Shown here piece after piece: positions 27,341 through 40,387 of a DNA stretch of 55,122 nt. A program made the position numbers and the translations under genes. Below the pieces are notes generated by a model, which had not been told where the DNA came from, did not search any database, and saw only the letters and a program-made list of their open reading frames with translations. Source of the DNA: an uncultured Alphaproteobacteria bacterium (GTDB taxonomy: Bacteria; Pseudomonadota; Alphaproteobacteria; Rs-D84). The stretch is from contig CALXLG010000007.1 in NCBI GenBank assembly GCA_944389135.1, forward strand, positions 1 through 55,122, read 5' to 3'. Each line of letters starts with the position of its first letter. Position 1 is the first letter of the stretch.

Positions 27341-27769
27341 ATGTTAAAAATATGGACAGACGGCAGTTGTCTTGGGAATCCTGGCCCAGGCGGGTGGGCA
27401 TTTATAGCAACAAACGGCAAAGAAACGGCACAGCGCAGCGGGGGCGAAGCAAACACAACAAACAACCGTATGGAATTAACGGCGGTAATACGTGCCTTAA
27501 CAGCGGCGCGTCATCATGACGAACTGGAAATACACACCGACAGTCAGTATGTAAAGAACGGTATGCAGACATGGCTGACACAATGGAAGAATAATAATTG
27601 GAAGACGGGGGCAAATAAACCGGTAAAGAACAAAGAACTGTGGCAACAACTGGACGCAGTTGCCAAAGATAAAAAGATACATTGGGTTTGGGTACGTGGT
27701 CACGCCGGCAACGAAATGAACGAGCGTTGCGATGAACTGGCACGCACCGCGGCAGAAAGCTTTAGATAA
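27341..27769 (+). CDS. rnhA: Ribonuclease HI
   Basis: A 142-residue RNase HI cutting the RNA strand of RNA-DNA hybrids. Catalytic residues are Asp7 (TDGSC), Glu45 (NNRMEL), Asp67 (TDSQYV) and Asp131, with His121 in RGHAGN. These match E. coli Asp10, Glu48, Asp70, Asp134 and His124 with a constant offset of three. AAGGAAA precedes the ATG. Its last ten codons and terminator occur again in altered form at 33879-33965, next to the second surface-protein gene. Confidence 0.97.
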   Translation: MLKIWTDGSCLGNPGPGGWAFIATNGKETAQRSGGEANTTNNRMELTAVIRALTAARHHDELEIHTDSQYVKNGMQTWLTQWKNNNWKTGANKPVKNKELWQQLDAVAKDKKIHWVWVRGHAGNEMNERCDELARTAAESFR

Positions 27770-27846: not shown

Positions 27847-30800
27847 TTACTTCCACGCCGCCGGTATTGAACTGTAATCTGACAACCCTGTCGCACCACG
27901 GTACATGTCGTCGACGTAACTTGATGTGGCGGTATCAAAATAATCATATAAATACGTACCGTCTGGCTGGCGTGCGGACGGACCTGTGAGTTTACTGCAT
28001 CCAGAAAAAGTATCATAAAACATGTTTTCTGCAGGTACACCCGACAGTTCACCAAACAATCCCAATGGTATTTCACCTGAAAGATTACTGCAATTACGAA
28101 ATGTAGCACCAAACATACCTTCTGCAGGCGCACCCTGAATACCAGCAAACAAATCTGCTGGGATACCGGTCAGACCACTGCATCCATCAAAGGTACTCTG
28201 AAACATACGCTCAGCTGGCGCACCCTGAATACCAGCAAACAAACCTGCTGGTATTTCACCGGTTAAACCACTACACCCATCAAATGTACTATAAAACATA
28301 TAACTTGCTGGCGCACCTTGAACGCCACTAAATAGGTTTTCCGGTATACTTACAAGCGATGTTTCCATAAATGTAGCTGCAAACCTTGGTTGACGACCAT
28401 CTGGCAATGTACTGAATATTTCACCCAAACTTCCTGATATTTTCGCAATATTGGTATTTTCTGCAAAGCTTATCGCCGCAGACATCATAAGCTCCATAAA
28501 ATCAATAGATTGGTTTTCTTCTGTTTCCAACTCGCTATAATCCGTTGCCTTACCGTCAAGCCCTATAAAATACTGACCTGCTTTGTCATACGTATGACTG
28601 TATGGTGTCATAGTTGTATCAGACTTTGTTATTTTCTCGGTTTTGCCATCACCCCAGTCAATCGTATATTCACCAGCCGCACTTATCTGAAAACTAAAAC
28701 TACTGGTATCAGGCGTTGTTGTTATATAGAATGATGCTTCGACTGGTTCTATCGGATCCGTTGAGCCACCACATACACCACCGGCACCACCCCACAATTC
28801 TGGTATACATGGATAATCTTCTAACCCAGTCGCCCCTGTGTACATATCACCGACTTGTGTTATTGTTGCAGTATCAAAATAATCATACAAATACGTACCA
28901 TCTGGTTGGCGTGCGGAAGGTCCCGTCAAACCACTGCATTCTGAAAAAGTCATCATAAACATCATTTCTGCTGGGGCACCAGATAATTCCCCAAACAGAC
29001 CCAACGGGATTTCACCTGAAAGATTAGTGCACCCGGTAAACGTTGCCGCAAACATCATTTCTGCTGGTGCGCCCGATATACCATCAAACAAACCATCCGG
29101 TATACTTGTTATTGGCGTCATACCAAATGTACCGTAAAACATACCATTTGCTGGCGCACCCTGAATACCACTAAACAAGTTCTCTGGTATGCTTGTTATT
29201 GGTGTCCCTACAAATGTCATTGCAAACATAAAATCTTTTGGAGCACCTTGAACGCCACTAAACAAGTTCTCTGGTATGCTTGTTATTGATGTCATCATAA
29301 ATGTAGCTGCAAATCTTGGTTGACTGCCATCTGGTAATGTACTGAATATTTCGCCCAAACTTCCTGATATATTCGCAATGTTGGTATTTCCTGCAAAGCT
29401 TATCGCCGCAGACATCATCATCAATTCTTCTGAACCTTCTTGAGTTATATCTATCTCTGCATCATTATAATCTGTGGCTTTACCGCCCAAGCCTATTGTA
29501 TATTCACCTGCGGTATCATACGTATGACTGTATGGTGTCATATTAGTATCGGTTTTTGTTATTGTCTCGGTTTTGCCGTCACCCCAGTCAATCGTGTATT
29601 CACCCGCCGCACTTATCATTATATCAAAACTGCTGGTTGTCGGGGTTGTTGTTATAAAGAAAGAAGACTTAGGCGCACATACACCACCGGCGCCACCCCA
29701 TTCTGTAGGTATGCATGGATAATCATCCAGCCCAGTCGCACCAGAGTACATATCAAAACTACCGCCCTCTGCAAAGTAATCATATAAATACGTACCGTCT
29801 GGCATTCTGGCAGACGGACCAGTGAGTCCCGCACAACCAGAAAACGTTGCCCAAAACATTAAAGCATTAACCGAATTCGACAATTCGCCAAATAATCCCA
29901 ATGGTATTTCACCGGCTAACCCACTGCAACCAGAAAACGTCAATGCAAACATCTCCTCTGCTGGTGCGCCAGACAATTCACCAAACAACCCCGCTGGGAT
30001 ACTTGTCAAGCCACTGCATCCAGAAAATGTACCATCAAACATACACTCTGCTGGTGCGCCAGACAATTCACCAAACAACCCTGCTGGGATTTCACCTGTC
30101 AACCCGCTGCAACCAGAAAACGTATATGCAAACATATACCCTGCTGGCGCACCCGACAATTCACCAAACAGCCCCGCTGGGATTTCACCTGTCAGATTCT
30201 TGCATCCATAAAATGTTCTATAAAACATATACTCTGCTGGTGCGCCAGACAATTCACCAAACAAGCCCGCTGGGATTTCACCAGTTAAACCGCTACAGCT
30301 ATCAAATGTGTTGTAAAACATATTCTGTGCCGGCACACCGCGAATACCTGAAAATAAGCCTGCTGGGATTTCACCAGTCAACCCACTGCAACCAGAAAAC
30401 GTACCAGCAAACATCTCCTCTGCTGGCGCACCAGACAATTCACCAAACAACCCCGCCGGGATTTCACCGGTTAAACCACTACAGCCATCAAATGTGTTGT
30501 AAAACATCCCACTTGCTGGCGCTCCTGATATACCGGCGAACAGGTCCGCTGGGATACTGCCAGTTAGGCCACTGCATCCAGCAAACGTACCACTAAACAT
30601 ACTATCCGCATGCGCACCGGATATCCCGGCAAATAAACTTGCAGGGATACTACCTGTTAGACCACTACATCCTGCAAAAGTCTGCGCAAACATCCCCATT
30701 GCCGGCGTACCTTTGATACCAGAAAAAAAGCCCACAGGAATACTGCCCGTCAACCAACGACAACCAAAAAATGTTGATGCAAACATTCCAACTGCTGGTG

Positions 30801-31629
30801 CACCTTGAATATCAGCAAACAAACCGGCTGGTATGCTTGTTATTGGTGTCATCATAAATGTCATTACAAACATAAAATCTGTTGGGGCACCTTGAATACC
30901 ACTAAACAAGTTCTCTGGTATGCTTGTTATTGATGTCATCATAAATGTAGCTGCAAATCTTGGTTGACTGCCATCTGGTAATGTACTGAATATTTCACCT
31001 AAACTTCCTGATATGTCCGCAATATTGGTATTGCCCCCAAAGCTTATCGCTGCAGACATCATCGCTAATTCTTCTGAACCTTCTTGAGACGAGTCTATCT
31101 CTGCATCATTATAATCTGTGGCTTTACCGCCTAGTCCAATTGTATATTCACCTGCTTTATCATACGTATGACTGTATGGTGTCATAGTGGTATCGGTTTT
31201 TGTTATTGTCTCGGTTTTGCCGTCACCCCAGTCAATCGTGTATTCACCAGCCGCACTTATCATTATATCAAAACTGCTGGTTGTCGGCGTTGTTGTTATA
31301 AAGAAAGACGACTTATTCTGTTTTTCTATCAATCTGTTTACTGCATCTATCGTTGCAACAGTGTCTGCGGCATATAAGGTCGCGTATTCACTGTTGCCAT
31401 AGTCTGTCGTAGGGGTGCCATTTAATATCTCGTTCGCTTTGTCTACTGCTTTTAATACATATTCCATATTTGCTGCATATTTCAGACTATCTTCGTAATA
31501 CGGCACGTCTATATTCCAGACTTTCTTTATCAGGCTGTGTACGTATTCTACGTTTACTATTTCCGCACTATGTGCAGGTACATATGATGTAAATAACAAT
31601 AATATCGCCAGAAATATTCGCTTTAACAT
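27847..31629 (-). CDS. Exported repeat protein, three PKD/BspA-like modules (surface protein 1)
   Basis: A 1260-residue protein with signal peptide MLKRIFLAILLLFTSYVPAHSA. A helical N-terminal region (to about residue 110) is followed by three modules. Each has a ~65-residue PKD-like domain centred on IDWGDGKTE, then tandem ~31-residue repeats of the form GCSGLTGEIPAGLFxxxxG, APAxxMFxxTF, then a cap GPSARxPDGTYLYDYF...GATGLxDYP. By eye the modules carry about 12, 4 and 4 repeats. The repeat resembles the BspA/DUF285 leucine-rich type found in surface adhesins. Inner modules end in WGGAGGVC and the protein ends in DYSSIPAAWK. AAAGGA precedes the ATG. Confidence 0.9.
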   Translation of the reverse strand: MLKRIFLAILLLFTSYVPAHSAEIVNVEYVHSLIKKVWNIDVPYYEDSLKYAANMEYVLKAVDKANEILNGTPTTDYGNSEYATLYAADTVATIDAVNRLIEKQNKSSFFITTTPTTSSFDIMISAAGEYTIDWGDGKTETITKTDTTMTPYSHTYDKAGEYTIGLGGKATDYNDAEIDSSQEGSEELAMMSAAISFGGNTNIADISGSLGEIFSTLPDGSQPRFAATFMMTSITSIPENLFSGIQGAPTDFMFVMTFMMTPITSIPAGLFADIQGAPAVGMFASTFFGCRWLTGSIPVGFFSGIKGTPAMGMFAQTFAGCSGLTGSIPASLFAGISGAHADSMFSGTFAGCSGLTGSIPADLFAGISGAPASGMFYNTFDGCSGLTGEIPAGLFGELSGAPAEEMFAGTFSGCSGLTGEIPAGLFSGIRGVPAQNMFYNTFDSCSGLTGEIPAGLFGELSGAPAEYMFYRTFYGCKNLTGEIPAGLFGELSGAPAGYMFAYTFSGCSGLTGEIPAGLFGELSGAPAECMFDGTFSGCSGLTSIPAGLFGELSGAPAEEMFALTFSGCSGLAGEIPLGLFGELSNSVNALMFWATFSGCAGLTGPSARMPDGTYLYDYFAEGGSFDMYSGATGLDDYPCIPTEWGGAGGVCAPKSSFFITTTPTTSSFDIMISAAGEYTIDWGDGKTETITKTDTNMTPYSHTYDTAGEYTIGLGGKATDYNDAEIDITQEGSEELMMMSAAISFAGNTNIANISGSLGEIFSTLPDGSQPRFAATFMMTSITSIPENLFSGVQGAPKDFMFAMTFVGTPITSIPENLFSGIQGAPANGMFYGTFGMTPITSIPDGLFDGISGAPAEMMFAATFTGCTNLSGEIPLGLFGELSGAPAEMMFMMTFSECSGLTGPSARQPDGTYLYDYFDTATITQVGDMYTGATGLEDYPCIPELWGGAGGVCGGSTDPIEPVEASFYITTTPDTSSFSFQISAAGEYTIDWGDGKTEKITKSDTTMTPYSHTYDKAGQYFIGLDGKATDYSELETEENQSIDFMELMMSAAISFAENTNIAKISGSLGEIFSTLPDGRQPRFAATFMETSLVSIPENLFSGVQGAPASYMFYSTFDGCSGLTGEIPAGLFAGIQGAPAERMFQSTFDGCSGLTGIPADLFAGIQGAPAEGMFGATFRNCSNLSGEIPLGLFGELSGVPAENMFYDTFSGCSKLTGPSARQPDGTYLYDYFDTATSSYVDDMYRGATGLSDYSSIPAAWK

Positions 31630-31762
31630 AGTCCTTTCCCCCCAACATTGTTTTACATAACCACAAAAAATGCCTATTTTCTGCGGTTCTTTCCCAATGT
31701 AGATATATTTTCATACTTATTAAAGCAAATTTAACTTTTTTTTACAAGAGTCTTTTTTATGT
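31630..31762. repeat. Promoter/leader repeat, copy 1
   Basis: This 133 bp segment upstream of surface protein 1 is repeated at 37059-37192 upstream of surface protein 2 with only a few differences. It includes the promoter and the whole 5' leader, and similarity stops abruptly at both ends. Confidence 0.9.
31700..31728 (-). promoter_or_regulatory. Promoter of surface protein 1
   Basis: On the minus strand TTGCTT (31723-31728), a 17 bp spacer and TATCTA (31700-31705), giving a leader of about 65 nt. Confidence 0.6.
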
Positions 31763-31764
31763 AA

Positions 31765-31795
31765 AAAAGCCCCATATAATCGGGGCTTTTATATA
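31765..31795 (-). terminator. Terminator of the 199-residue exported protein gene
   Basis: Stem AAAAGCCCC/GGGGCTTTT with an 8 nt loop, followed on the minus strand by a T-tract, 40 bp after the stop at 31831. Confidence 0.82.
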
Positions 31796-31830
31796 AATAA
31801 ACAACCACAGTAATTACAAAGGCTATAAAA

Positions 31831-32430
31831 TTACGGCAACGGTTGTGTTGGAACTTTCAAAGACCCGGTAACCTCATAAGTACCTTGCAATACCTGATCT
31901 GCCTCTGGCACAGTATCAACTTTTGTATCCAGAGAATCTTGCAAATCGTTATCTGTTTCGTGCAAAGCATCTGTTTCCGCATACATTTCTTCGCGTAATT
32001 TATCAATTTCACTTTGCAAATCAGCCGCCATTCCACTATCAAAACCACCATCAGCATAGCCATCATCATTTGGTGCCTGTGGTTTTATAGAACTGCCACC
32101 ACTAATAGACGTGCCGCCACCTAAGAATTTTCCAATAGATAATCTTGGGAGAGCAGCTGCACGCCCAGCATTAGATGTGTTATTAGTTTTTATTGTTGTA
32201 CTGCTTGCGCTTTGTCCCGAACCAGAAGTTACCCTTACAGAACCGCCACGCAAAACAGCAGATGACGCCCCCGCAGAACTTTTTGAACCGCCACCAGACG
32301 CAACCGCAGCGCTAGAATAAGTACCTGCACCACCCAAGCTACGTACAGACGCAGCCGCATGTGCGCCATCTACACAAAAAGCCGCTACAAAAAGGCCACA
32401 AATTATAAAAGAAAAGTATTTTTGTATCAT
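31831..32430 (-). CDS. Exported Gly/Ser-rich protein sharing a C-terminal motif with the 122-residue protein
   Basis: A 199-residue protein with a signal peptide (cleavage near AHA-AA), a Gly/Ser/Ala-rich region (residues 25-120) and a short acidic coiled coil (about 132-172). The C-terminus reads LQGTYEVTGSLKVPTQPLP. The same plan ends the 122-residue protein at 38782-39150 (LQGTYNVSGVMYVNTPTLP), also after a KVD segment. The start follows an AGAGAGAGAG tract instead of an ordinary Shine-Dalgarno. No known family is recognised. It lies downstream of the outer-membrane barrel gene with 29 bp between, so they may be one operon. Confidence 0.82.
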   Translation of the reverse strand: MIQKYFSFIICGLFVAAFCVDGAHAAASVRSLGGAGTYSSAAVASGGGSKSSAGASSAVLRGGSVRVTSGSGQSASSTTIKTNNTSNAGRAAALPRLSIGKFLGGGTSISGGSSIKPQAPNDDGYADGGFDSGMAADLQSEIDKLREEMYAETDALHETDNDLQDSLDTKVDTVPEADQVLQGTYEVTGSLKVPTQPLP

Positions 32431-32459
32431 TGCTCTCTCTCTTTTTTATTTAACAAGCC

Positions 32460-33194
32460 TTAGAATTCGTATCTTAACCCAATAGAGATAGAATTATCTA
32501 ACACAAGCCCTATTTTATTTTCTACATACGCATCTTTCCAAACTCCCGGTGCATCTTCTGTGTCATACTGCAAATGACGCGTTTGACTGCCACCATAAAA
32601 GCCAGACAATCTATAACGAATATCCAACACAAGATTATAATCTAACTCCTTGGCAAATCCAAACATCAGTCCTGCCATAGGCGACACAGATGTCTTTTTT
32701 CTGTCACCAGCGATAAAATTCTCATAATCCATACGTTTAATTGGCATTGCCGCACCTAAACCAGCACCAACATAAAAGTTATTTGCAAAATCATAATAAC
32801 CATTAAGCATAACGTATGGAACAGTTAAACCAAATTCGACATTATTATCTTTATCTGTATATTGGCCTAAGATACCAGCTTCTAATTCAGCACGCCAGAA
32901 ATACATAAAACGATAACCAGCAGACAAGTTACCACCAATCACAGGCTCAAAAGAATATTTATCACTATTAAAATTTTCGTTTACCCCTGGATAGTCAGAA
33001 CTATATTTATTAGTCCAATTTAAAAAGCTAAGTTCTGCACGACCACCAACATACCACCCAGACTTTGCTTTATCTGTATAATCATAAGTAACCTTATATG
33101 CATCTGTTCCAACACGTGTTAAATAGCTTGGTGCAGCAAATGCGCCAGAGACACCCATCAAAACACATAATGATGACAGCAATATTTTTTTCAT
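32460..33194 (-). CDS. Outer-membrane beta-barrel protein
   Basis: A 244-residue protein with signal peptide MKKILLSSLCVLMGVSGAFA. The mature part has alternating aromatic and hydrophobic residues in about eight strands (GWYVGGRAELSF, PVIGGNLSAGYRF, FYVGAGLGAAMP, SISIGLRYEF) and ends in Phe, the usual signal for barrel insertion. It matches the general plan of small Opa/OmpA-like barrels; a specific family or ligand cannot be named. It is divergent from pal. Confidence 0.85.
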   Translation of the reverse strand: MKKILLSSLCVLMGVSGAFAAPSYLTRVGTDAYKVTYDYTDKAKSGWYVGGRAELSFLNWTNKYSSDYPGVNENFNSDKYSFEPVIGGNLSAGYRFMYFWRAELEAGILGQYTDKDNNVEFGLTVPYVMLNGYYDFANNFYVGAGLGAAMPIKRMDYENFIAGDRKKTSVSPMAGLMFGFAKELDYNLVLDIRYRLSGFYGGSQTRHLQYDTEDAPGVWKDAYVENKIGLVLDNSISIGLRYEF

Positions 33195-33283
33195 GTTAAA
33201 AATCTCCTTGTTTCCATTTATTTGTATGTATTATATCATATGATTCATTATATTAACAGAAAAAAATAATCAAAATACCAACA

Positions 33284-33312
33284 TTGACATATACATTATA
33301 TTATGATATTTT
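33284..33312 (+). promoter_or_regulatory. Promoter of pal
   Basis: A perfect TTGACA (33284-33289), a 17 bp spacer and TATTTT (33307-33312) with TGA directly before it (extended -10). AAGGAA precedes the ATG at 33344. Confidence 0.78.
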
Positions 33313-33343
33313 ATATATGAATATATAACCAAGGAAATTAATC

Positions 33344-33742
33344 ATGAAAAAACTTTTGGGTTGTTTTTTATGCTTACAGCTTGTTGCATGTGGTGGGCTA
33401 ACAACAATAGAAGATGAAAAAGTATTCTTTGCATTTGATTCTGCACATATTTCTGATGAAGCGCGTGAAAATCTTGAAGAACAAGCTTTATATATGAAGC
33501 GTCATCCCGATATCAAGGTATTAGTTGCGGGCCATTGTGATGAACGTGGTTCAACAGAATATAATTTGGCATTAGGTGCATTACGTGCTGGGAACGCAGC
33601 ACATGTTTTAATTGCCGAAGGCATTGAACCAGAACGCATTGAAACAATCTCGTACGGGAAAGAGCGTCCACAATATCCAGGCACAGGTGAAGAGGTTTGG
33701 GCCAAGAATCGTAACGCAACGACGACTGTTATTAGTGAATAA
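33344..33742 (+). CDS. pal: Peptidoglycan-associated lipoprotein (OmpA-like domain)
   Basis: A 132-residue lipoprotein with lipobox LVAC near residue 16 and an OmpA/Pal domain (VFFAFDSAHISDEARENL, VAGHCDERGSTEYNLALGALRA, ISYGKERP, NRNATTTV). Pal anchors the outer membrane to peptidoglycan in the Tol-Pal complex. The Asp and Arg that bind diaminopimelate (DERGSTEYN and the late NR) are kept. At 132 residues it is short, with almost no linker between lipid anchor and domain. The tol genes and ybgF are not next to it here. Confidence 0.93.
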   Translation: MKKLLGCFLCLQLVACGGLTTIEDEKVFFAFDSAHISDEARENLEEQALYMKRHPDIKVLVAGHCDERGSTEYNLALGALRAGNAAHVLIAEGIEPERIETISYGKERPQYPGTGEEVWAKNRNATTTVISE

Positions 33743-33761
33743 AAATCATAAACATTTCCAG

Positions 33762-33791
33762 CAAGGCGATATAATATCGCCTTGTTTTTTT
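33762..33791 (+). terminator. Terminator of pal
   Basis: A 10 bp perfect stem CAAGGCGATA/TATCGCCTTG with a 3 nt loop, followed by seven T. Confidence 0.88.
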
Positions 33792-33878
33792 ATATATTAG
33801 GTATTTCAAAATAAAATAAGAAGCAGATATCTGCTGATAAACACGTATTAACCGAATCGGTATTGCGATAGATTTATA

Positions 33879-33911
33879 TTGGCGCGCATCGCCACAGAAA
33901 GTTTTAGATAA
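33879..33911 (+). pseudogene. Remnant of the rnhA 3' end
   Basis: The reading frame gives LARIATESFR and a stop. The rnhA gene ends LARTAAESFR and a stop. The bases after the stop (AAGAA, then GAACCAAATATAAAAAACGCC) and the terminator also match those after rnhA at 27770-27820. Weaker similarity may begin near 33855. It marks one end of the unit duplicated together with the surface-protein gene. Confidence 0.85.
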
Positions 33912-33930
33912 AGAAGATTGAACCAAATAT

Positions 33931-33965
33931 AAAAAACGCCCAGAACAACGGGCGTTTTTTATTAA
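33931..33965. terminator. Terminator copy next to surface protein 2
   Basis: Stem AAAAAACGCCC (33931-33941) and its complement (33950-33960), with an 8 nt loop. It is a near copy of the rnhA terminator, keeping both arms exactly while the loop changed. Confidence 0.88.
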
Positions 33966-33986
33966 CGCATAGCTGAAGCCCCTATT

Positions 33987-36900
33987 TTACTTCCACGCCG
34001 CCGGTATTGAGGCGTAATCTGACAACCCAGTCGCACCAGTGTACATATTCTCAACATGACTGGTTTTTGCGGTATTAAAGTAATTATATAAATACGTTCC
34101 GTCTGGCTGGCGTGCTGAAGGCCCTGTTAAACCACTGCATCCATTGAATGTTTTATAGAACATAGAAGTTTTTGGTGTGTTTGATGTAAAGGTTCCAAAT
34201 AACCCCAACGGTATTTCACCCGTCAGCCCACTGCATCCAGAAAATGTACCACTAAACATATACTCTGCCGGCGCACCCTGAATACCTGCAAACAGGTTTT
34301 CTGGTATACTGCCCGTAAGTCCACTGCATCCAGAAAATGTACCACTAAACATACTTTCTGCTGGCGCACCCGTTATCCCTGCAAACAGGTCTGCTGGGAT
34401 ACTGGTCAGGCCACTGCATCCATCAAACGTACCACTAAACATACGCCCTGCCGGCGCACCTCGTATTCCTGCAAACAAATCTGCTGGTATTTCACCAGAA
34501 AGATTACTGCATCCAGAAAATGTACTGAAAAACATACTACCTGCTGGCGCACCCTGTATCCCTGCAAACAGGTCCGCTGGGATACTGGTCAGGCCACTGC
34601 ATCCAGAAAATGTATACGCAAACATACTAATTGCTGGCGCACCCTGAATACCAGCAAACAGGTCCGCAGGGATTTCACCAGTCAGGCCCCTGCATCCATA
34701 AAAGGTATAGTAAAACATACCAAATTCTGGCGCACCCTGAATTCCTGCAAACAGCTTTTCTGGTATACTGCCCGTGAGTCCCGTGCAACCTTTAAATGTA
34801 TTGCTAAACATCTGTTCTGCTGGTGCACCCTGCACACCTGCAAACAGGTCTGCTGGTATTTCACCCGTCAGCCCACTGCATTCAGAAAATGTAGAATAAA
34901 ACCTTGGTTGTGTGCCGTCTGATAATGTTGAAAATACCTTGCCCAAACTGCCCGATATTCCAACAATGTTTTTATTACTACGGAAACTTACTGCCGCAGT
35001 TGATGTACTGCTGCTATATGCAGTTGCCTGACCACCAAGACCGATTGTATATTCACCCGCACTGGCATATGTATGCCTGTATGTCGTTTCCGTTGTATCA
35101 GACTTTGTTATTGTCTCTATCTCACCGTCACCCCAGTCAATCGTATATTCACCTGCCGCACTTATCTTAAAACTAAAACTGCTGGTTGTCGGCGTTGTCG
35201 TTATAAAAAACGACGGTTTAGGCGCACATACACCACCGGCACCACCCCACGCCGTCGGTATGCACGGATAATCTTCTAACCCAGTCGCACCTGTGTACAT
35301 GCCACCGACGTGACTTGATGTGGCGGTATTAAAATAATCATATAAATACGTACCATCTGGCATTCTGACGGATGGTCCCGTCAAATTCCTACAGTTACCA
35401 AAGGCTTGATAAAACATATAATTTTTCGGTGTTTTTGTATCATAATCACCAAATAACCCCAACGGCACAGTACCAGTTAAACCGGAATCCCCCCAAAAAG
35501 TAGCTCTAAACATGCCTTCTGCTGGTGCACCACTTATCTCGCCAAATAAACCTGCAGGAATTTCGCCAGTTAACCCGCTACAACCATAAAATGTAAAAGC
35601 ATACATATAATTTTTTGGCACGCCAGAAACTTCTCCAAACAATCCATCAGGTATACTACCGGTAAGATTACTAGCCAATCCGAACACGCCTGTATACATA
35701 TAATCTGCCGGTGCGCCTGATATACTACCAAACAACCCTGCTGGAATTTCACCGGTTAAACCGCTACAGCCATAAAATGTATAAGCATACATTCTTTCTG
35801 CTGGGGCACCACTTATCTCACCAAATAAATTTTCCGGAATGCCTCCTGTCAGGCTTTTACAATCTTGAAACGTTTGAGCAAACATACGAACTGCGGGAGC
35901 GCCTTTTATGTTACCAAATAATTTTTCTGGAATAGGACCTTGTAAGCCACTACAACCATAAAAAGTTGAATAAAACATATACTCTGCTGGTGCACCACTT
36001 ATCTCACCAAATAAATTTTCCGGTATCCCCCCTGTTAGACTATCACAATATTGAAAAGTTTGAGCAAACATATACTCTGCGGGAGCCCCCCGTATTCCCG
36101 CGAACATGTCCGCTGGGATTTCACCTGTGAGGTCCGTGCACCCATAAAAAGTACCATAAAACATACCTGTTGCTGGCGCACCTTGAATACCACTAAATAA
36201 ATCAGACGGTATACTTGTTATTGGCGTATAACCAAAAGCATATGCAAAAACATACGACGCAGGCGCACCAGAAATTCCAGAGAACAAATCATTAGGTATA
36301 CTTATTAATGACGTATTAGTAAAAGTCATTGCGAACATCCAATCTGTTGGTGCACCTTGAATACCACTAAACAGATTTTCAGTTATACTTGTCAAACCAC
36401 TGCATCCAGAAAATGTAGCATAGAACCTGGGCTGAGTGCCGTCTGATAATGTACTGAATATTTCACCCAAACTGCCTGATATACCAGTAATGTTTGTATT
36501 ATTTAAAAAACTTACTGCTGCGGTTTCCGTATCAGAATTATATGCAGTTGCCTGCCCACCAAGACCGATTGTATATTCACCTGCACTAGCATACGTATGA
36601 CTGTATGTCGTATCCGTTGTATCAGACTTTGTTATTGTCTCGGTTTTGCCATCACCCCAATCAACCGTATATTCACCCGCCGCACTTATCTTAAAACTAA
36701 AACTGCTAGTTGTCGGCGTTGTTGTTATAAAGAAAGATGACTTATTCTGTTTTTCTATCAACCTGTTTACTGCATCTATCGTTGCAACTGTATCTGCCGC
36801 ATATAAGGTCGCATATTCACTGCTGCCATAGTCTGTCGTAGGGGTGCCATTTAATATCTCGTTCGCTTTGTCTACTGCTTTTAATACATATTCCATATTC

Positions 36901-37058
36901 GCTGCATATTTCAGACTATCTTCGTAATACGGTACGTCTATATCCCAGACTTTCTTTATCAGGCTGTGTACGTATTCTACGTTTACTATTTCCGCACTAT
37001 GTGCAGGTACATATGATGTAAATAACAATAATATCGCCAGAAATATTCGCTTTAACAT
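33987..37058 (-). CDS. Exported repeat protein, two PKD/BspA-like modules (surface protein 2)
   Basis: A 1023-residue paralogue of surface protein 1. The signal peptide and the first ~110 residues are almost identical. It has two modules, each a PKD-like WGDG domain followed by ~31-residue repeats (about 11 and 8 by eye) and the GPSxRxPDGTYLY cap. Several first-module repeats have diverged (GGIPENLFGEISGAPAERMYAYTF, TVPLGLFGDYDTK), while the second module is more uniform. It ends in DYASIPAAWK like its relatives. Likely located on the cell surface; no enzymatic motif is seen. Confidence 0.9.
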   Translation of the reverse strand: MLKRIFLAILLLFTSYVPAHSAEIVNVEYVHSLIKKVWDIDVPYYEDSLKYAANMEYVLKAVDKANEILNGTPTTDYGSSEYATLYAADTVATIDAVNRLIEKQNKSSFFITTTPTTSSFSFKISAAGEYTVDWGDGKTETITKSDTTDTTYSHTYASAGEYTIGLGGQATAYNSDTETAAVSFLNNTNITGISGSLGEIFSTLSDGTQPRFYATFSGCSGLTSITENLFSGIQGAPTDWMFAMTFTNTSLISIPNDLFSGISGAPASYVFAYAFGYTPITSIPSDLFSGIQGAPATGMFYGTFYGCTDLTGEIPADMFAGIRGAPAEYMFAQTFQYCDSLTGGIPENLFGEISGAPAEYMFYSTFYGCSGLQGPIPEKLFGNIKGAPAVRMFAQTFQDCKSLTGGIPENLFGEISGAPAERMYAYTFYGCSGLTGEIPAGLFGSISGAPADYMYTGVFGLASNLTGSIPDGLFGEVSGVPKNYMYAFTFYGCSGLTGEIPAGLFGEISGAPAEGMFRATFWGDSGLTGTVPLGLFGDYDTKTPKNYMFYQAFGNCRNLTGPSVRMPDGTYLYDYFNTATSSHVGGMYTGATGLEDYPCIPTAWGGAGGVCAPKPSFFITTTPTTSSFSFKISAAGEYTIDWGDGEIETITKSDTTETTYRHTYASAGEYTIGLGGQATAYSSSTSTAAVSFRSNKNIVGISGSLGKVFSTLSDGTQPRFYSTFSECSGLTGEIPADLFAGVQGAPAEQMFSNTFKGCTGLTGSIPEKLFAGIQGAPEFGMFYYTFYGCRGLTGEIPADLFAGIQGAPAISMFAYTFSGCSGLTSIPADLFAGIQGAPAGSMFFSTFSGCSNLSGEIPADLFAGIRGAPAGRMFSGTFDGCSGLTSIPADLFAGITGAPAESMFSGTFSGCSGLTGSIPENLFAGIQGAPAEYMFSGTFSGCSGLTGEIPLGLFGTFTSNTPKTSMFYKTFNGCSGLTGPSARQPDGTYLYNYFNTAKTSHVENMYTGATGLSDYASIPAAWK

Positions 37059-37192
37059 AGTCCTTTTCCCCCCAACATTGTTTTACATAACCTCAAAAAA
37101 TGCCTATTTTCTGCGGTTCTTTCCCAATGTAGTTATACTTTCATACTTATTAAAGCAAATTTGACTTTTTTTTACAAGAGTCTTTTTTATGC
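37059..37192. repeat. Promoter/leader repeat, copy 2
   Basis: A near-identical copy of 31630-31762, with single-base changes and one extra T. Similarity ends at 37192, immediately before the stop codon of surface protein 3, so the duplicated unit abuts the third paralogue. Confidence 0.9.
37130..37158 (-). promoter_or_regulatory. Promoter of surface protein 2
   Basis: On the minus strand TTGCTT (37153-37158), a 17 bp spacer and TAACTA (37130-37135), at the same place as in copy 1 but with changed -10 bases. Confidence 0.55.
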
Positions 37193-37194
37193 TT

Positions 37195-38745
37195 TTACTT
37201 CCACGCCGTCGGTATTGAACTGTAATCTGACAAGCCTGTACAGTTATAATACATATCACGCGCAGCAGAACTTGCGGTATTAAAATAATTGTACAAATAC
37301 GTACCATCCGGCATTCGGGCTGATGGTCCTGTCAACTTGTTACAATTATAAAAAGTATTAACAAACATATTTGTCCTTGCTGTATTTGATGTGAAAGTAC
37401 CAAACATTCCTAACGGTATTTCACCGGAAAGTTCTGTACAACCTTCAAATGTAGCTTGATACATATAATCTGCTGGTGCGCCATTTATTCGTGAAAACAA
37501 AGGCCCTTCTATAGTTTTTAGCTTGGTACAAGTAAGAAAAGTACCATTAAACATAAATGTAGCTGGTCGCCCATATATCCCTGCAAACAAGTTTGCAGGG
37601 ATAGACTCTATACCAGACTGACGAAAAGTCGTTTGAAACATGCCATACGCAGGCTCGCCCTGTACACCTGCAAATAAATTTTCTGGAATTTCTGATATGC
37701 CGGAACATCCCCAGAACGTAGATTGAAACATCTGTTGCGCAGGTTTCCCCTGAATACCTGCAAACAAGTTTTCTGAGATTTTTGTCAAACCGCTACAATT
37801 TGCAAAAGCACTATAAAACATGCTTTGCGCTGGTGCACCTTGAATTCCAGCAAACAAATTGCCCGGGATTTCCCCAGTTAAACCACTACAGCCCTCAAAA
37901 ACACGATAAAACACAAACGGTTGTGGCGAACCATTTAATCCGGCAAACAGATTTTCTGGAATTTCACCAGTGAAACCACTGCATCCATAGAAAGTATTGT
38001 CAAACATATTTGATACAGGTTGCCCAGTAACACCAGCAAATAAGTTTTCTGGTATATTACTTTTTATATTGGTACAATTATAGAATGTTTGATAAAACCT
38101 TGGTTGTCCCCCATTAGCTAACGTACTAAAGACCTCTCCTAAACTGCCAGATATTTTTGCGATATTTTTATTAGCATTGAAACTTACTGCTGCGGTTGTT
38201 GTATTAGAATTATATAAAGTTGCCTTTCCCCCAAGACCAATTATGTATTCTCCTGATCTAGCATAAGTATGACTATATGTTTTGGTTGTTGTATCTGTTT
38301 TCGTTATCTCATCTATATTACCGTCACCCCAGTCAATCGTATACTCTCCCGCCGCACTTATCTTAAAACTAAAACTGCTTGTAGATGAAGTAGTTGTTAT
38401 AAAGAACACAGAATTCAACTGCTTTACTATCAAATTATTTACTGCATCTATCGTTGCAACTGTGTCGACAGCTCGCTTCGTCGCATAACGCGTATCAGTT
38501 CCATACGAAGAGGTCTCCCTACCATTTAAAATCTCGTTTGCCCTATCTACTACTTTTAATAAATATTCCATATTGGCAACCATTTTTGCATTCTCTAAAA
38601 AATAAGGAACATCTATCTGCCATGTTTGTGTAATCAATTTATGAATATATTCAACATTCACAACTTGTGCGGCATTAACTGTTGACACGTTCATGCCAAC
38701 AAACAACAAATAAACTATAAAAAAAATACGTTTTAGTATTTTCAT
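37195..38745 (-). CDS. Exported repeat protein, one PKD/BspA-like module (surface protein 3)
   Basis: A 516-residue member of the same family with one module. It has a signal peptide (MKILKRIFFIVYLLFVG..., cleavage near VNA-AQ), the helical N-terminal region with VNVEYIHKLI and ANEILNG, one PKD-like domain (IDWGDGNIDEI), about eight ~31-residue repeats (for example GCSGISEIPENLFAGVQGEP) and the end DYSSIPTAWK. It is the most diverged of the three, with repeats less alike, so it may be the older form. It follows the 122-residue exported gene by 36 bp on the same strand. Confidence 0.9.
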   Translation of the reverse strand: MKILKRIFFIVYLLFVGMNVSTVNAAQVVNVEYIHKLITQTWQIDVPYFLENAKMVANMEYLLKVVDRANEILNGRETSSYGTDTRYATKRAVDTVATIDAVNNLIVKQLNSVFFITTTSSTSSFSFKISAAGEYTIDWGDGNIDEITKTDTTTKTYSHTYARSGEYIIGLGGKATLYNSNTTTAAVSFNANKNIAKISGSLGEVFSTLANGGQPRFYQTFYNCTNIKSNIPENLFAGVTGQPVSNMFDNTFYGCSGFTGEIPENLFAGLNGSPQPFVFYRVFEGCSGLTGEIPGNLFAGIQGAPAQSMFYSAFANCSGLTKISENLFAGIQGKPAQQMFQSTFWGCSGISEIPENLFAGVQGEPAYGMFQTTFRQSGIESIPANLFAGIYGRPATFMFNGTFLTCTKLKTIEGPLFSRINGAPADYMYQATFEGCTELSGEIPLGMFGTFTSNTARTNMFVNTFYNCNKLTGPSARMPDGTYLYNYFNTASSAARDMYYNCTGLSDYSSIPTAWK

Positions 38746-38781: not shown

Positions 38782-39150
38782 TTAATTCGCCGCAGGCAAC
38801 GTAGGCGTATTAACATACATAACACCAGAAACATTATATGTTCCTTGCAATGTTTGATTTGTTCCTGACGCAACATCCACCTTTGTTGTCAATGCATTTT
38901 TTACCGCCAGCGCACTAGGATATTTTGTATTGTCGCTAAATGTTGTATTCAAACTTGAAACTTTGTTTGACTTGTCCTCTTTTCCAACAATCGCATCCGC
39001 TATTTTCTGTGCTAATTCTGAAGTATTTAGCTTTAACGCCAACCTCTCTGTCAAATATCCTGCAGATACAACATCAGCAAAAGCTACCCCTTGTGGAAGC
39101 ATGCCCACAACCACACAAAACACACAAATCGCACGTTTTATTATTCTCAT
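38782..39150 (-). CDS. Small exported protein with LQGTY C-terminal motif
   Basis: A 122-residue protein with a signal peptide (cleavage near AFA-DV). Near the N-terminus, VVSAGYLTERLALKLNTSE resembles in layout the VNVEYVHSLI start of the surface proteins. The middle, KVSSLNTTFSDNTKYPSA and LAVKNALTTKVD, looks like a phage-fibre or trimerisation-type segment. The C-terminus LQGTYNVSGVMYVNTPTLP matches the end of the 199-residue protein at 31831-32430. The ATG directly follows a GAGAGAG tract. It is probably first in an operon with surface protein 3. The function is unknown. Confidence 0.8.
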   Translation of the reverse strand: MRIIKRAICVFCVVVGMLPQGVAFADVVSAGYLTERLALKLNTSELAQKIADAIVGKEDKSNKVSSLNTTFSDNTKYPSALAVKNALTTKVDVASGTNQTLQGTYNVSGVMYVNTPTLPAAN

Positions 39151-39880: not shown

Positions 39881-40387
39881 TTATTGAATGCCTGACTTTT
39901 TCATTTTTTCCATTACTGCTTCCATTCCGCCCATGCGCTGAATCATCGCCATCTGCTGACGCATTTTAGTATATTGCTTTATAATATGCTCTACGTCACG
40001 AACAGTACAACCTGCCTTTTCCGCAATACGAGCCTTGGCATTTGCAAAAATCTTTTCTGGGTCAGCACGTTCTTCTACAGTCATTGCTTCTAATATTTTT
40101 ATCTGGGCATCAACACTGCCATCTTTGATTTTTTCTTTCATCGCAGACACTGCCCCTGACATACCTGGAACCATTTTTAACAGTCCGCTAAAATTACTCA
40201 TCTTTTTTATCTGCTTTAGCTGCGCCAACATATCGTTCATATCAAATTGACCAGACATCATACGCTGGGCGGTTTCTTTCATACCACTTGGAATTTTATC
40301 TTCCATTTTCTTCAGTTCTTTTTCATCAATCTGGACATCTGAAGTTTCTTTGATTTTTTCCGCTTTCTTTTTTCCGAAACCAAACAT
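39881..40387 (-). CDS. Stand-alone SRP54 M-domain protein
   Basis: A 168-residue protein that aligns by eye with the C-terminal M domain of Ffh. It has FDMNDMLAQLKQIKKMSNFS, LLKMVPGM, the EAMTVEERADPEKI stretch, a RIAEKAGCTVRDVEHIIKQY segment and a Met-rich tail (MRQQMAMIQRMGGMEAVMEKM). There is no GTPase (NG) domain; the N-terminus is a short basic start (MFGFGKKK) and an acidic linker. The signature loop that binds SRP RNA in Ffh (GSRxxRIAxGSG) is altered to NAKARIAEKAG. It may bind hydrophobic segments or RNA, or compete with Ffh. It sits between uvrA (24 bp) and rlmE. Confidence 0.82.
   Translation of the reverse strand: MFGFGKKKAEKIKETSDVQIDEKELKKMEDKIPSGMKETAQRMMSGQFDMNDMLAQLKQIKKMSNFSGLLKMVPGMSGAVSAMKEKIKDGSVDAQIKILEAMTVEERADPEKIFANAKARIAEKAGCTVRDVEHIIKQYTKMRQQMAMIQRMGGMEAVMEKMKKSGIQ

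What the first reader, a model, noticed from the sequence alone, without database searches (positions are those of the whole stretch)
27847..38745. Array of three modular surface proteins with 3, 2 and 1 copies of the same PKD-plus-repeat module
Seen: three paralogues on one strand share signal peptide, helical N-terminal region, a WGDG-type domain, ~31-residue repeats (about 20, 19 and 8 by eye) and a shared ending DY(S/A)SIPxAWK. They differ in number of modules. Known: BspA/DUF285-type repeats occur in adhesins of host-associated microbes. Inferred: the array grows and shrinks by recombination between 93 bp repeat units and between modules, giving antigen or adhesin variation. The strict period near 31 residues, with invariant G-APA-xMF, differs from the usual 26-residue BspA description and may be a separate repeat class.
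Basis: partly seen in the sequence, partly recalled or inferred. Interest (0 to 1): 0.7.

Follow-up and report, generated by a model that had tools for sequence, protein, structure and literature searches.

The report
Fast-diversifying leucine-rich-repeat surface proteins
A bacterium with a very small genome carries three related exported proteins made of an Ig-like (PKD) domain plus long leucine-rich repeats, in which five residues of each 31-residue repeat change faster than silent DNA sites while the rest is held fixed, which is what one expects of a binding or target surface under selection to vary.

Summary
Three minus-strand paralogues have 3, 2 and 1 PKD domains and 20, 19 and 8 counted repeat units. 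The usual spacing is 31 residues. They share a signal peptide, a helical N-terminal region and the ending DY(S/A)SIPxAWK. They are not one contiguous array: three unrelated genes lie between A and B. The fold is a confident leucine-rich-repeat (LRR) solenoid next to a PKD domain. The repeat is a long-period relative of the BspA/PARCEL repeats. The same PKD-repeat-cap design occurs in phage tail proteins. The family is large and lineage-specific: 104 of 183 genomes of its taxonomic family have it, and none of 397 others drawn from the phylum. The locus between rlmE and rnhA is an accessory-gene site: empty in 14 relatives, holding this family in the window and four others. Between two species the gene differs by 93, 93 and 276 nt (whole units), and the block was exchanged horizontally. 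New here: unit positions 3, 4, 7, 30 and 31 have pN/pS 2.7 (2.25-3.2) against 0.17 for the framework. I read these as exported adhesins or antigens with a diversifying recognition patch. Ligand and cell-surface location are not shown.

The parts
37195..38745 (-). Paralogue C, 516 aa: signal peptide, helical N-terminal region, 1 PKD, 8 repeat units, C-terminal cap
33987..37058 (-). Paralogue B, 1023 aa: 2 PKD modules, 19 repeat units
27847..31629 (-). Paralogue A, 1260 aa: 3 PKD modules, 20 repeat units
29668..31311 (-). Module A1 (PKD, repeats, cap, Cys linker)
28738..29667 (-). Module A2; its PKD and N-cap DNA is 92.5% identical to A1
27850..28737 (-). Module A3 (terminal)
35217..36740 (-). 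Module B1
33990..35216 (-). Module B2 (terminal); its repeat part (33990-34961) modelled at mean pLDDT 93
37198..38412 (-). Module C1
31270..31761 (-). 5' block of A (about 130-nt leader with promoter-like sequence plus about 360 nt of coding DNA), mostly 95-100% identical to the block of B; the leader is found nowhere else in the genome
36698..37191 (-). 5' block of B, the counterpart of the A block
38782..39150 (-). s122: small secreted protein directly upstream of C (36-nt gap); it accompanies the family gene at this site in four other species
31831..32430 (-). s199: secreted protein between A and B; its C-terminus resembles that of s122
32460..33194 (-). Outer-membrane beta-barrel-like protein, 244 aa (weak match to the rickettsial adhesin Adr model, below its cut-off)
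33344..33742 (+). Pal/OmpA-like lipoprotein, 132 aa
39200..39865 (-). RlmE, conserved left border of the insertion site
27341..27769 (+). RnhA, conserved right border of the insertion site

Best explanation
These are exported, modular LRR recognition proteins, most likely adhesins, of a gut bacterium with a reduced genome. Each module is a PKD domain carrying an LRR solenoid closed by a C-terminal cap. The conserved residues of each 31-residue unit (MF..TF..C..L.G.IP..LF...G.PA) build the solenoid. Five probably outward-facing residues per unit (positions 30, 31, 3, 4 and 7) form a patch that is diversified by selection and so probably contacts the partner. Length changes by gain and loss of whole 93-bp units, modules duplicate, and whole gene blocks move between species at accessory sites such as rlmE-rnhA. 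Shown by tool: anatomy, fold prediction, family restriction, whole-unit indels, horizontal exchange of the block, excess of amino-acid change at the five positions. Inferred: export from the signal peptide, exposure at the cell surface, binding function, nature of the partner (host mucus or cells, protists, other bacteria, or phage).
For: LRR solenoid at mean pLDDT 93, pTM 0.91. Closest solved folds are nearly all LRRs, including BspA-type proteins of gut bacteria (4fs7 E 1.9e-4, 4gt6; VIA Z up to 16.6). PKD domain by Pfam. Hypervariable positions were defined on the window and tested on 228 units from 34 other genomes: among 160 unit pairs chosen on framework similarity alone, pN 0.482 at the five positions and 0.030 elsewhere, with pS 0.197 and 0.169. 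The ratio pN(hv)/pS is 2.74 (bootstrap median), bootstrap over genomes 2.25-3.20. Whole-unit indels, and a block 97% identical in the s122 gene and rnhA while transketolase is 71% identical. Empty and filled sites. The phage tail proteins that share the design act, by general knowledge, at the host-contact end of phages.
Against: No known cell-surface anchor or outer-membrane exporter was recognised, so the proteins could stay in the periplasm or be released. No binding partner is known. In the one clean orthologous pair (G096/G107) the five positions have pN/pS 0.80, not above 1, so the excess comes mainly from comparisons between units whose orthology is uncertain. Concerted evolution could lower framework pS. 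The N-terminal 108 residues had no confident model.
Confidence: 0.58

Rival explanations
1. Variable surface antigens or decoys: the patch varies because antibodies, phages or protist predators recognise it, not because it binds a ligand. LRRs are only the scaffold.
For: Diversifying pattern confined to five positions per unit; from 0 to more than 20 matches per genome within one genus; horizontal exchange of blocks.
Against: No switching device was recognised in the window, and there is no reverse transcriptase. The strict framework and shared phage use point to a working recognition scaffold.
Confidence: 0.25
2. Structural or matrix proteins: PKD-LRR chains build a coat or intercellular matrix, and repeat number sets length; variation is only relaxed constraint.
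For: Giant ORFs of about 6,400-6,600 aa in relatives; weak similarity of the PKD part to a pilus/matrix protein model, NF058578 PamR.
Against: Relaxed constraint cannot give pN/pS of 2.7. The PamR match is far below its cut-off (59.9 against 300 bits) and covers only the PKD motif.
Confidence: 0.1
3. Phage-derived: the genes are captured tail-fibre distal ends, or parts of a tail-like particle.
For: Sequence similarity to phage tail proteins at E 3e-20, the same kind of C-terminal cap, and predicted phage proteins with PKD plus LRR.
Against: The proteins have signal peptides, no phage domains by Pfam and no phage genes recognised beside them; the family is spread through one taxonomic family. 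Exchange could also have gone from bacteria to phages.
Confidence: 0.07

Closest known systems
PARCEL / DUF285 (PF03382, TIGR02167) repeat surface proteins (Roske et al. 2010, PMC2996958)
   Same: Tandem repeats around MF-x-x-C-x-x-L, conserved hydrophobic core with variable hydrophilic residues, lineage expansion in small genomes, horizontal spread; the relative L057 scores 90.4 bits against a cut-off of 30.
   Different: Period 31 instead of 25; window proteins miss PF03382 entirely and TIGR02167 narrowly (29.1 of 30); no dyad symmetry of the coding DNA beyond synonymous shuffles.
BspA-type LRR proteins (LRR_5, PF13306; TpLRR), e.g. Bacteroides ovatus BACOVA_04585 (4fs7)
   Same: LRR solenoid, gut and host-associated proteins, modelled repeat domain closest to 4fs7 by Foldseek.
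   Different: No match to LRR_5 or to the 23-residue TpLRR pattern; motif LTGxIPxxLF and 31-residue unit.
Phage tail proteins with repeats: Klebsiella phage ST16-OXA48phi5.4 (QBP07953.1), Escherichia phage WPEC6 (XXK93211.1)
   Same: In the Klebsiella protein a PKD-like YGDG domain, then CxxLxxxPxxLF repeats; in both a terminal cap (LDDYDDLPGNW, LSDYNNIPSGYK) like LSDYSSIPAAWK.
   Different: Fused to a P2 tail protein I domain (Klebsiella) or RCC1-like repeats (Escherichia); period 27 in the Klebsiella protein.
LRR recognition proteins with diversified exposed residues (plant LRR receptors, variable lymphocyte receptors; own knowledge)
   Same: Constant scaffold with a few selected, variable positions per repeat.
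   Different: Bacterial, with repeat gain and loss plus point change; no assembly or somatic mechanism seen. Which face the patch occupies was not determined.

Membership tests
Leucine-rich-repeat fold | Curved solenoid of stacked repeats with a leucine/hydrophobic core | tested here: met
   pLDDT 93, pTM 0.91; the top 50 rows are nearly all LRR proteins, Z up to 16.6 over 247 residues at rmsd 3.3; Foldseek 4fs7 E 1.9e-4.
PKD domain (PF00801) | Match above the curated cut-off | tested here: met
   A 33.5 and B 28.0 bits against 23.5; C only 14.0, but its PKD part aligns with those of A and B.
BspA-type LRR_5 (PF13306) / TpLRR | Profile match or 23-residue TpLRR pattern | tested here: not met
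   No LRR_5 match at E up to 10; 0 pattern matches in A, B and C.
PARCEL / DUF285 / TIGR02167 | Match to PF03382 or TIGR02167 above cut-off | tested here: not met
   Window proteins: none for PF03382; TIGR02167 29.1 against 30 in B. The relative L057 passes with 90.4.
PARCEL / DUF285 / TIGR02167 | 25-residue (75-nt) period | tested here: not met
   Period 31 in A and B; units 29-32.
PARCEL / DUF285 / TIGR02167 | Dyad symmetry in the coding DNA | tested here: not met
   6, 7 and 6 hits against 4.8, 4.3 and 3.0 in synonymous shuffles; a simpler test than the MEME palindromes of the paper.
PARCEL / DUF285 / TIGR02167 | Conserved hydrophobic and variable hydrophilic residues | tested here: met
   Per-position entropies.
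Diversity-generating retroelement target | Reverse transcriptase in the genome and adenine-directed change | tested here: not met
   No RVT_1 in the window genome; 83 of 431 changes at third codon positions and only 66% involve A.
Adhesin or surface-exposed protein | Shown location outside the cell and binding | not testable with these tools
   Only a signal peptide by eye; no anchor recognised.

The most novel reading that the evidence does not exclude
A whole bacterial family with genomes of about 1.1 Mb or less keeps a large, horizontally exchanged repertoire of LRR recognition proteins in which a fixed 31-residue scaffold presents a five-residue patch under strong diversifying selection. 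It would be a bacterial counterpart, in design, of LRR immune receptors, used to choose or track partner cells and sharing its module with phage receptor-binding proteins.
Probability: 0.3. Interest if true: 0.75.

Novelty: new variant of a known kind. Interest (0 to 1): 0.56.

Why it matters
BspA/PARCEL repeat proteins are widespread and mostly without known function. Here a family-wide set of relatives lets one see selection at the level of single repeat positions, which points to the likely contact surface and makes binding tests direct. It also gives a concrete candidate for how partner-dependent, reduced-genome gut bacteria recognise other cells, and a module shared with phage tail proteins.

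Tried and rejected
DGR mutagenesis: rejected. PARCEL palindromes: not found. Weak Pfam hits below cut-off (MMTV_SAg, Integrase_DNA, aRib, TTR_TEN1-4) were taken as chance. PDB sequence searches gave nothing significant for repeat or module. IMG/VR scan with module patterns found no relative. The GTDB contig scan found only three distant hits, in Bacteroidia, Bacteroidales and Patescibacteria. Homology of the N-terminal region to s122: hhalign probability 6%, only the signal peptide region. Phage origin of s122: no significant hit. The leader shared by A and B occurs nowhere else in the genome, so it is not a genome-wide regulatory element. Foldseek with the 516-aa model gave no significant PDB hit; the repeat part alone did. 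Relaxed constraint as the reason for variability: rejected for the pooled unit pairs by pN/pS above 2, but not by the G096/G107 pair alone.

Full report
1. The observation. Three minus-strand genes, A (27847-31629, 1260 aa), B (33987-37058, 1023 aa) and C (37195-38745, 516 aa), carry 3, 2 and 1 PKD (WGDG) domains and 20, 19 and 8 units anchored on M[FY]xxxF. Of 41 complete units 25 are exactly 31 residues long, the others 29, 30 or 32; the 31-mers are 61% identical on average against 8.7% when shuffled. TRF sees the 93- and 186-bp periods. All three start with a signal peptide (by eye) and a conserved N-terminal region of about 110 residues and end in DY(S/A)SIPxAWK. Internal modules end in DYPCIPxxWGGAGGVC. 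Between A and B lie three other genes: a secreted 199-aa protein, a beta-barrel-like protein and a Pal-like lipoprotein on the other strand. No other copy exists in the genome (986,597 bases, 98.5% complete), and the N-terminal region occurs only on these three.

2. What the module is. AlphaFold2 with only window sequences gives pLDDT around 90 or above for PKD, repeats and most of the cap of C, and mean 93, pTM 0.91, for the repeat part of B2. Nearly all of the top 50 solved chains are LRRs; by Foldseek the best is the BspA-type LRR protein 4fs7 of Bacteroides ovatus (E 1.9e-4). Short bridge strands fall at unit positions 12-14 (LTG) and 24-26 (IxG). So the repeat is an LRR with an unusually long unit. 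It has no match to LRR_5 or DUF285 and just misses the PARCEL-repeat model (29.1 of 30 bits in B), which a close relative passes clearly (L057, 90.4 bits). tblastn finds proteins named BspA family in Ruminococcus and Enterococcus (26-residue period), an LRR protein in Treponema (23) and a fimbrillin-like protein in Segatella (26).

3. Phage tail proteins share the design. Module B2 matches phage tail proteins, best a Klebsiella Peduoviridae phage protein (E 3e-20). Reading it shows tail protein I, Big_2, a YGDG domain, 27-residue CxxLxxxPxxLF repeats (Pfam LRR_5 and DUF285 above cut-off) and the end CAGLDDYDDLPGNW. A tail protein of Escherichia phage WPEC6 ends CTKLSDYNNIPSGYK. The 58-residue end of A aligns with that phage cap over 91% of its length at 40% identity, though alone only at E 0.1-0.2. 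A structure search of predicted viral proteins gives LRR and PKD-domain phage proteins at E 4e-15 to 1e-8. Direction of exchange is unknown.

4. Distribution. 87 of 141 genomes of the genus have relatives, with several genomes at 20 or more matches and single ORFs up to 6610 aa. In the taxonomic family it is 104 of 183 genomes, 9 of 13 genera. The wider order adds no positive genus (9 of 22), and none of the 397 other genomes drawn from the phylum matches at 1e-10. Genome sizes of 0.6-1.1 Mb fit Candidatus Enterousia (order Rs-D84), described as gut bacteria with reduced genomes that probably depend on a partner (PMC12306168). That identification is my inference, not a test.

5. The locus is a site of exchange. 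RlmE and RnhA are convergent neighbours in many genomes of the genus. In 14 relatives they are about 10-280 bp apart. In the window, G099, G029, G096 and G107 the s122 protein and family gene(s) lie between them; in 17 others the interval holds 0.8-5.2 kb of other sequence, many of its ORFs with signal-peptide-like starts. G099 against G029: s122 96.6%, rnhA 97.7% identical in DNA but transketolase 71.4% and the next marker 78.7%, so the block moved between species. The gene differs by indels of 276, 93 and 93 nt, whole units. G096 against G107, with flanks 90-97% identical, keeps 3 PKD and 24 units with 12 gap positions, so length is not hypervariable at that distance. In the window, A and B share a leader and 5' block at mostly 95-100% and then diverge, which points to recent duplication or conversion of the 5' end; A1 and A2 PKD DNA is 92.5% identical.

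6. Diversifying selection on five positions. In the window units entropy is high at positions 3, 4, 7, 30 and 31, the residues around MF..TF. Tested on 228 units from 34 other genomes: among 160 unit pairs whose framework DNA differs by at most 10% (the five sites not used in the choice), pN is 0.482 at the five positions and 0.030 at the other 26, while pS is 0.197 and 0.169. The ratio to overall pS is 2.80 (bootstrap over genomes median 2.74, 2.25-3.20), against 0.17 for the framework and 0.32 for eleven semi-variable positions. With framework difference of at most 5%, hv pN is 0.356 and framework pS 0.070. The orthologous gene pairs give hv pN/pS 4.0 (G099/G029, unit alignment partly uncertain) and 0.80 (G096/G107), against 0.52 and 0.11 for the adjacent framework. 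The excess is therefore strong between units and only consistent with, not proven by, the cleanest orthologue pair. DGR mutagenesis is excluded by codon pattern and absence of reverse transcriptase.

7. Mechanism. Most likely an exported LRR adhesin or recognition protein; the five-residue patch is the contact or target surface; the scaffold is kept; repertoire changes by point change, unit gain and loss, module duplication and block transfer. Antigenic evasion is the main rival and need not exclude binding. Export beyond the periplasm, anchor and partner are open.

8. Novelty. A lineage-specific, long-period variant of the BspA/PARCEL LRR group. The position-resolved selection, the mobile rlmE-rnhA site and the cap shared with phage tail proteins are what a specialist would find new; I found no paper on them, within limited full-text searches.

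Noticed in passing
window 39881-40387 (-); L127 17827-18345; L128 5281-5805: A 168-aa ORF between UvrA and RlmE is an SRP54 M domain alone (the only PF02978 match in the genome). The SRP GTPase domain of Ffh and FtsY (PF00448) gives no match in this 98.5% complete genome although all 14 control genomes ring. M-domain-only ORFs of 173-175 aa sit at the same place in two relatives. The lineage may have lost both SRP GTPases and kept the M domain, which would be very unusual.
   Followed up: partly
window 38782-39150 (-); L095 13295-13696; L106 1238-1774; L107 839-1165; L108 806-1144: Small secreted protein with a YPSALAVKNAL..KVD motif always directly upstream of the family gene at the rlmE-rnhA site; a doubled copy of the segment in G029.
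   Followed up: partly
L052/L053 (G086:C10), L054 (G136:C2), L056 (G088:C2): Relatives have open frames of 6358, 6610 and 4110 aa with the same modules in genomes of about 0.8-1.0 Mb.
   Followed up: no
window 29822-30596 (+): Two overlapping plus-strand ORFs of 129 and 231 aa run opposite the repeats of A; probably a by-product of the repeat codons.
   Followed up: no
L082 1322-4348: Klebsiella phage tail protein I fused to Big_2, a PKD-like domain and more than 20 LRR-type repeats: an LRR-ended phage tail protein.
   Followed up: partly
L104-L131, rlmE-rnhA interval: In 17 relatives the same interval holds various other accessory ORFs, often with signal-peptide-like starts.
   Followed up: partly
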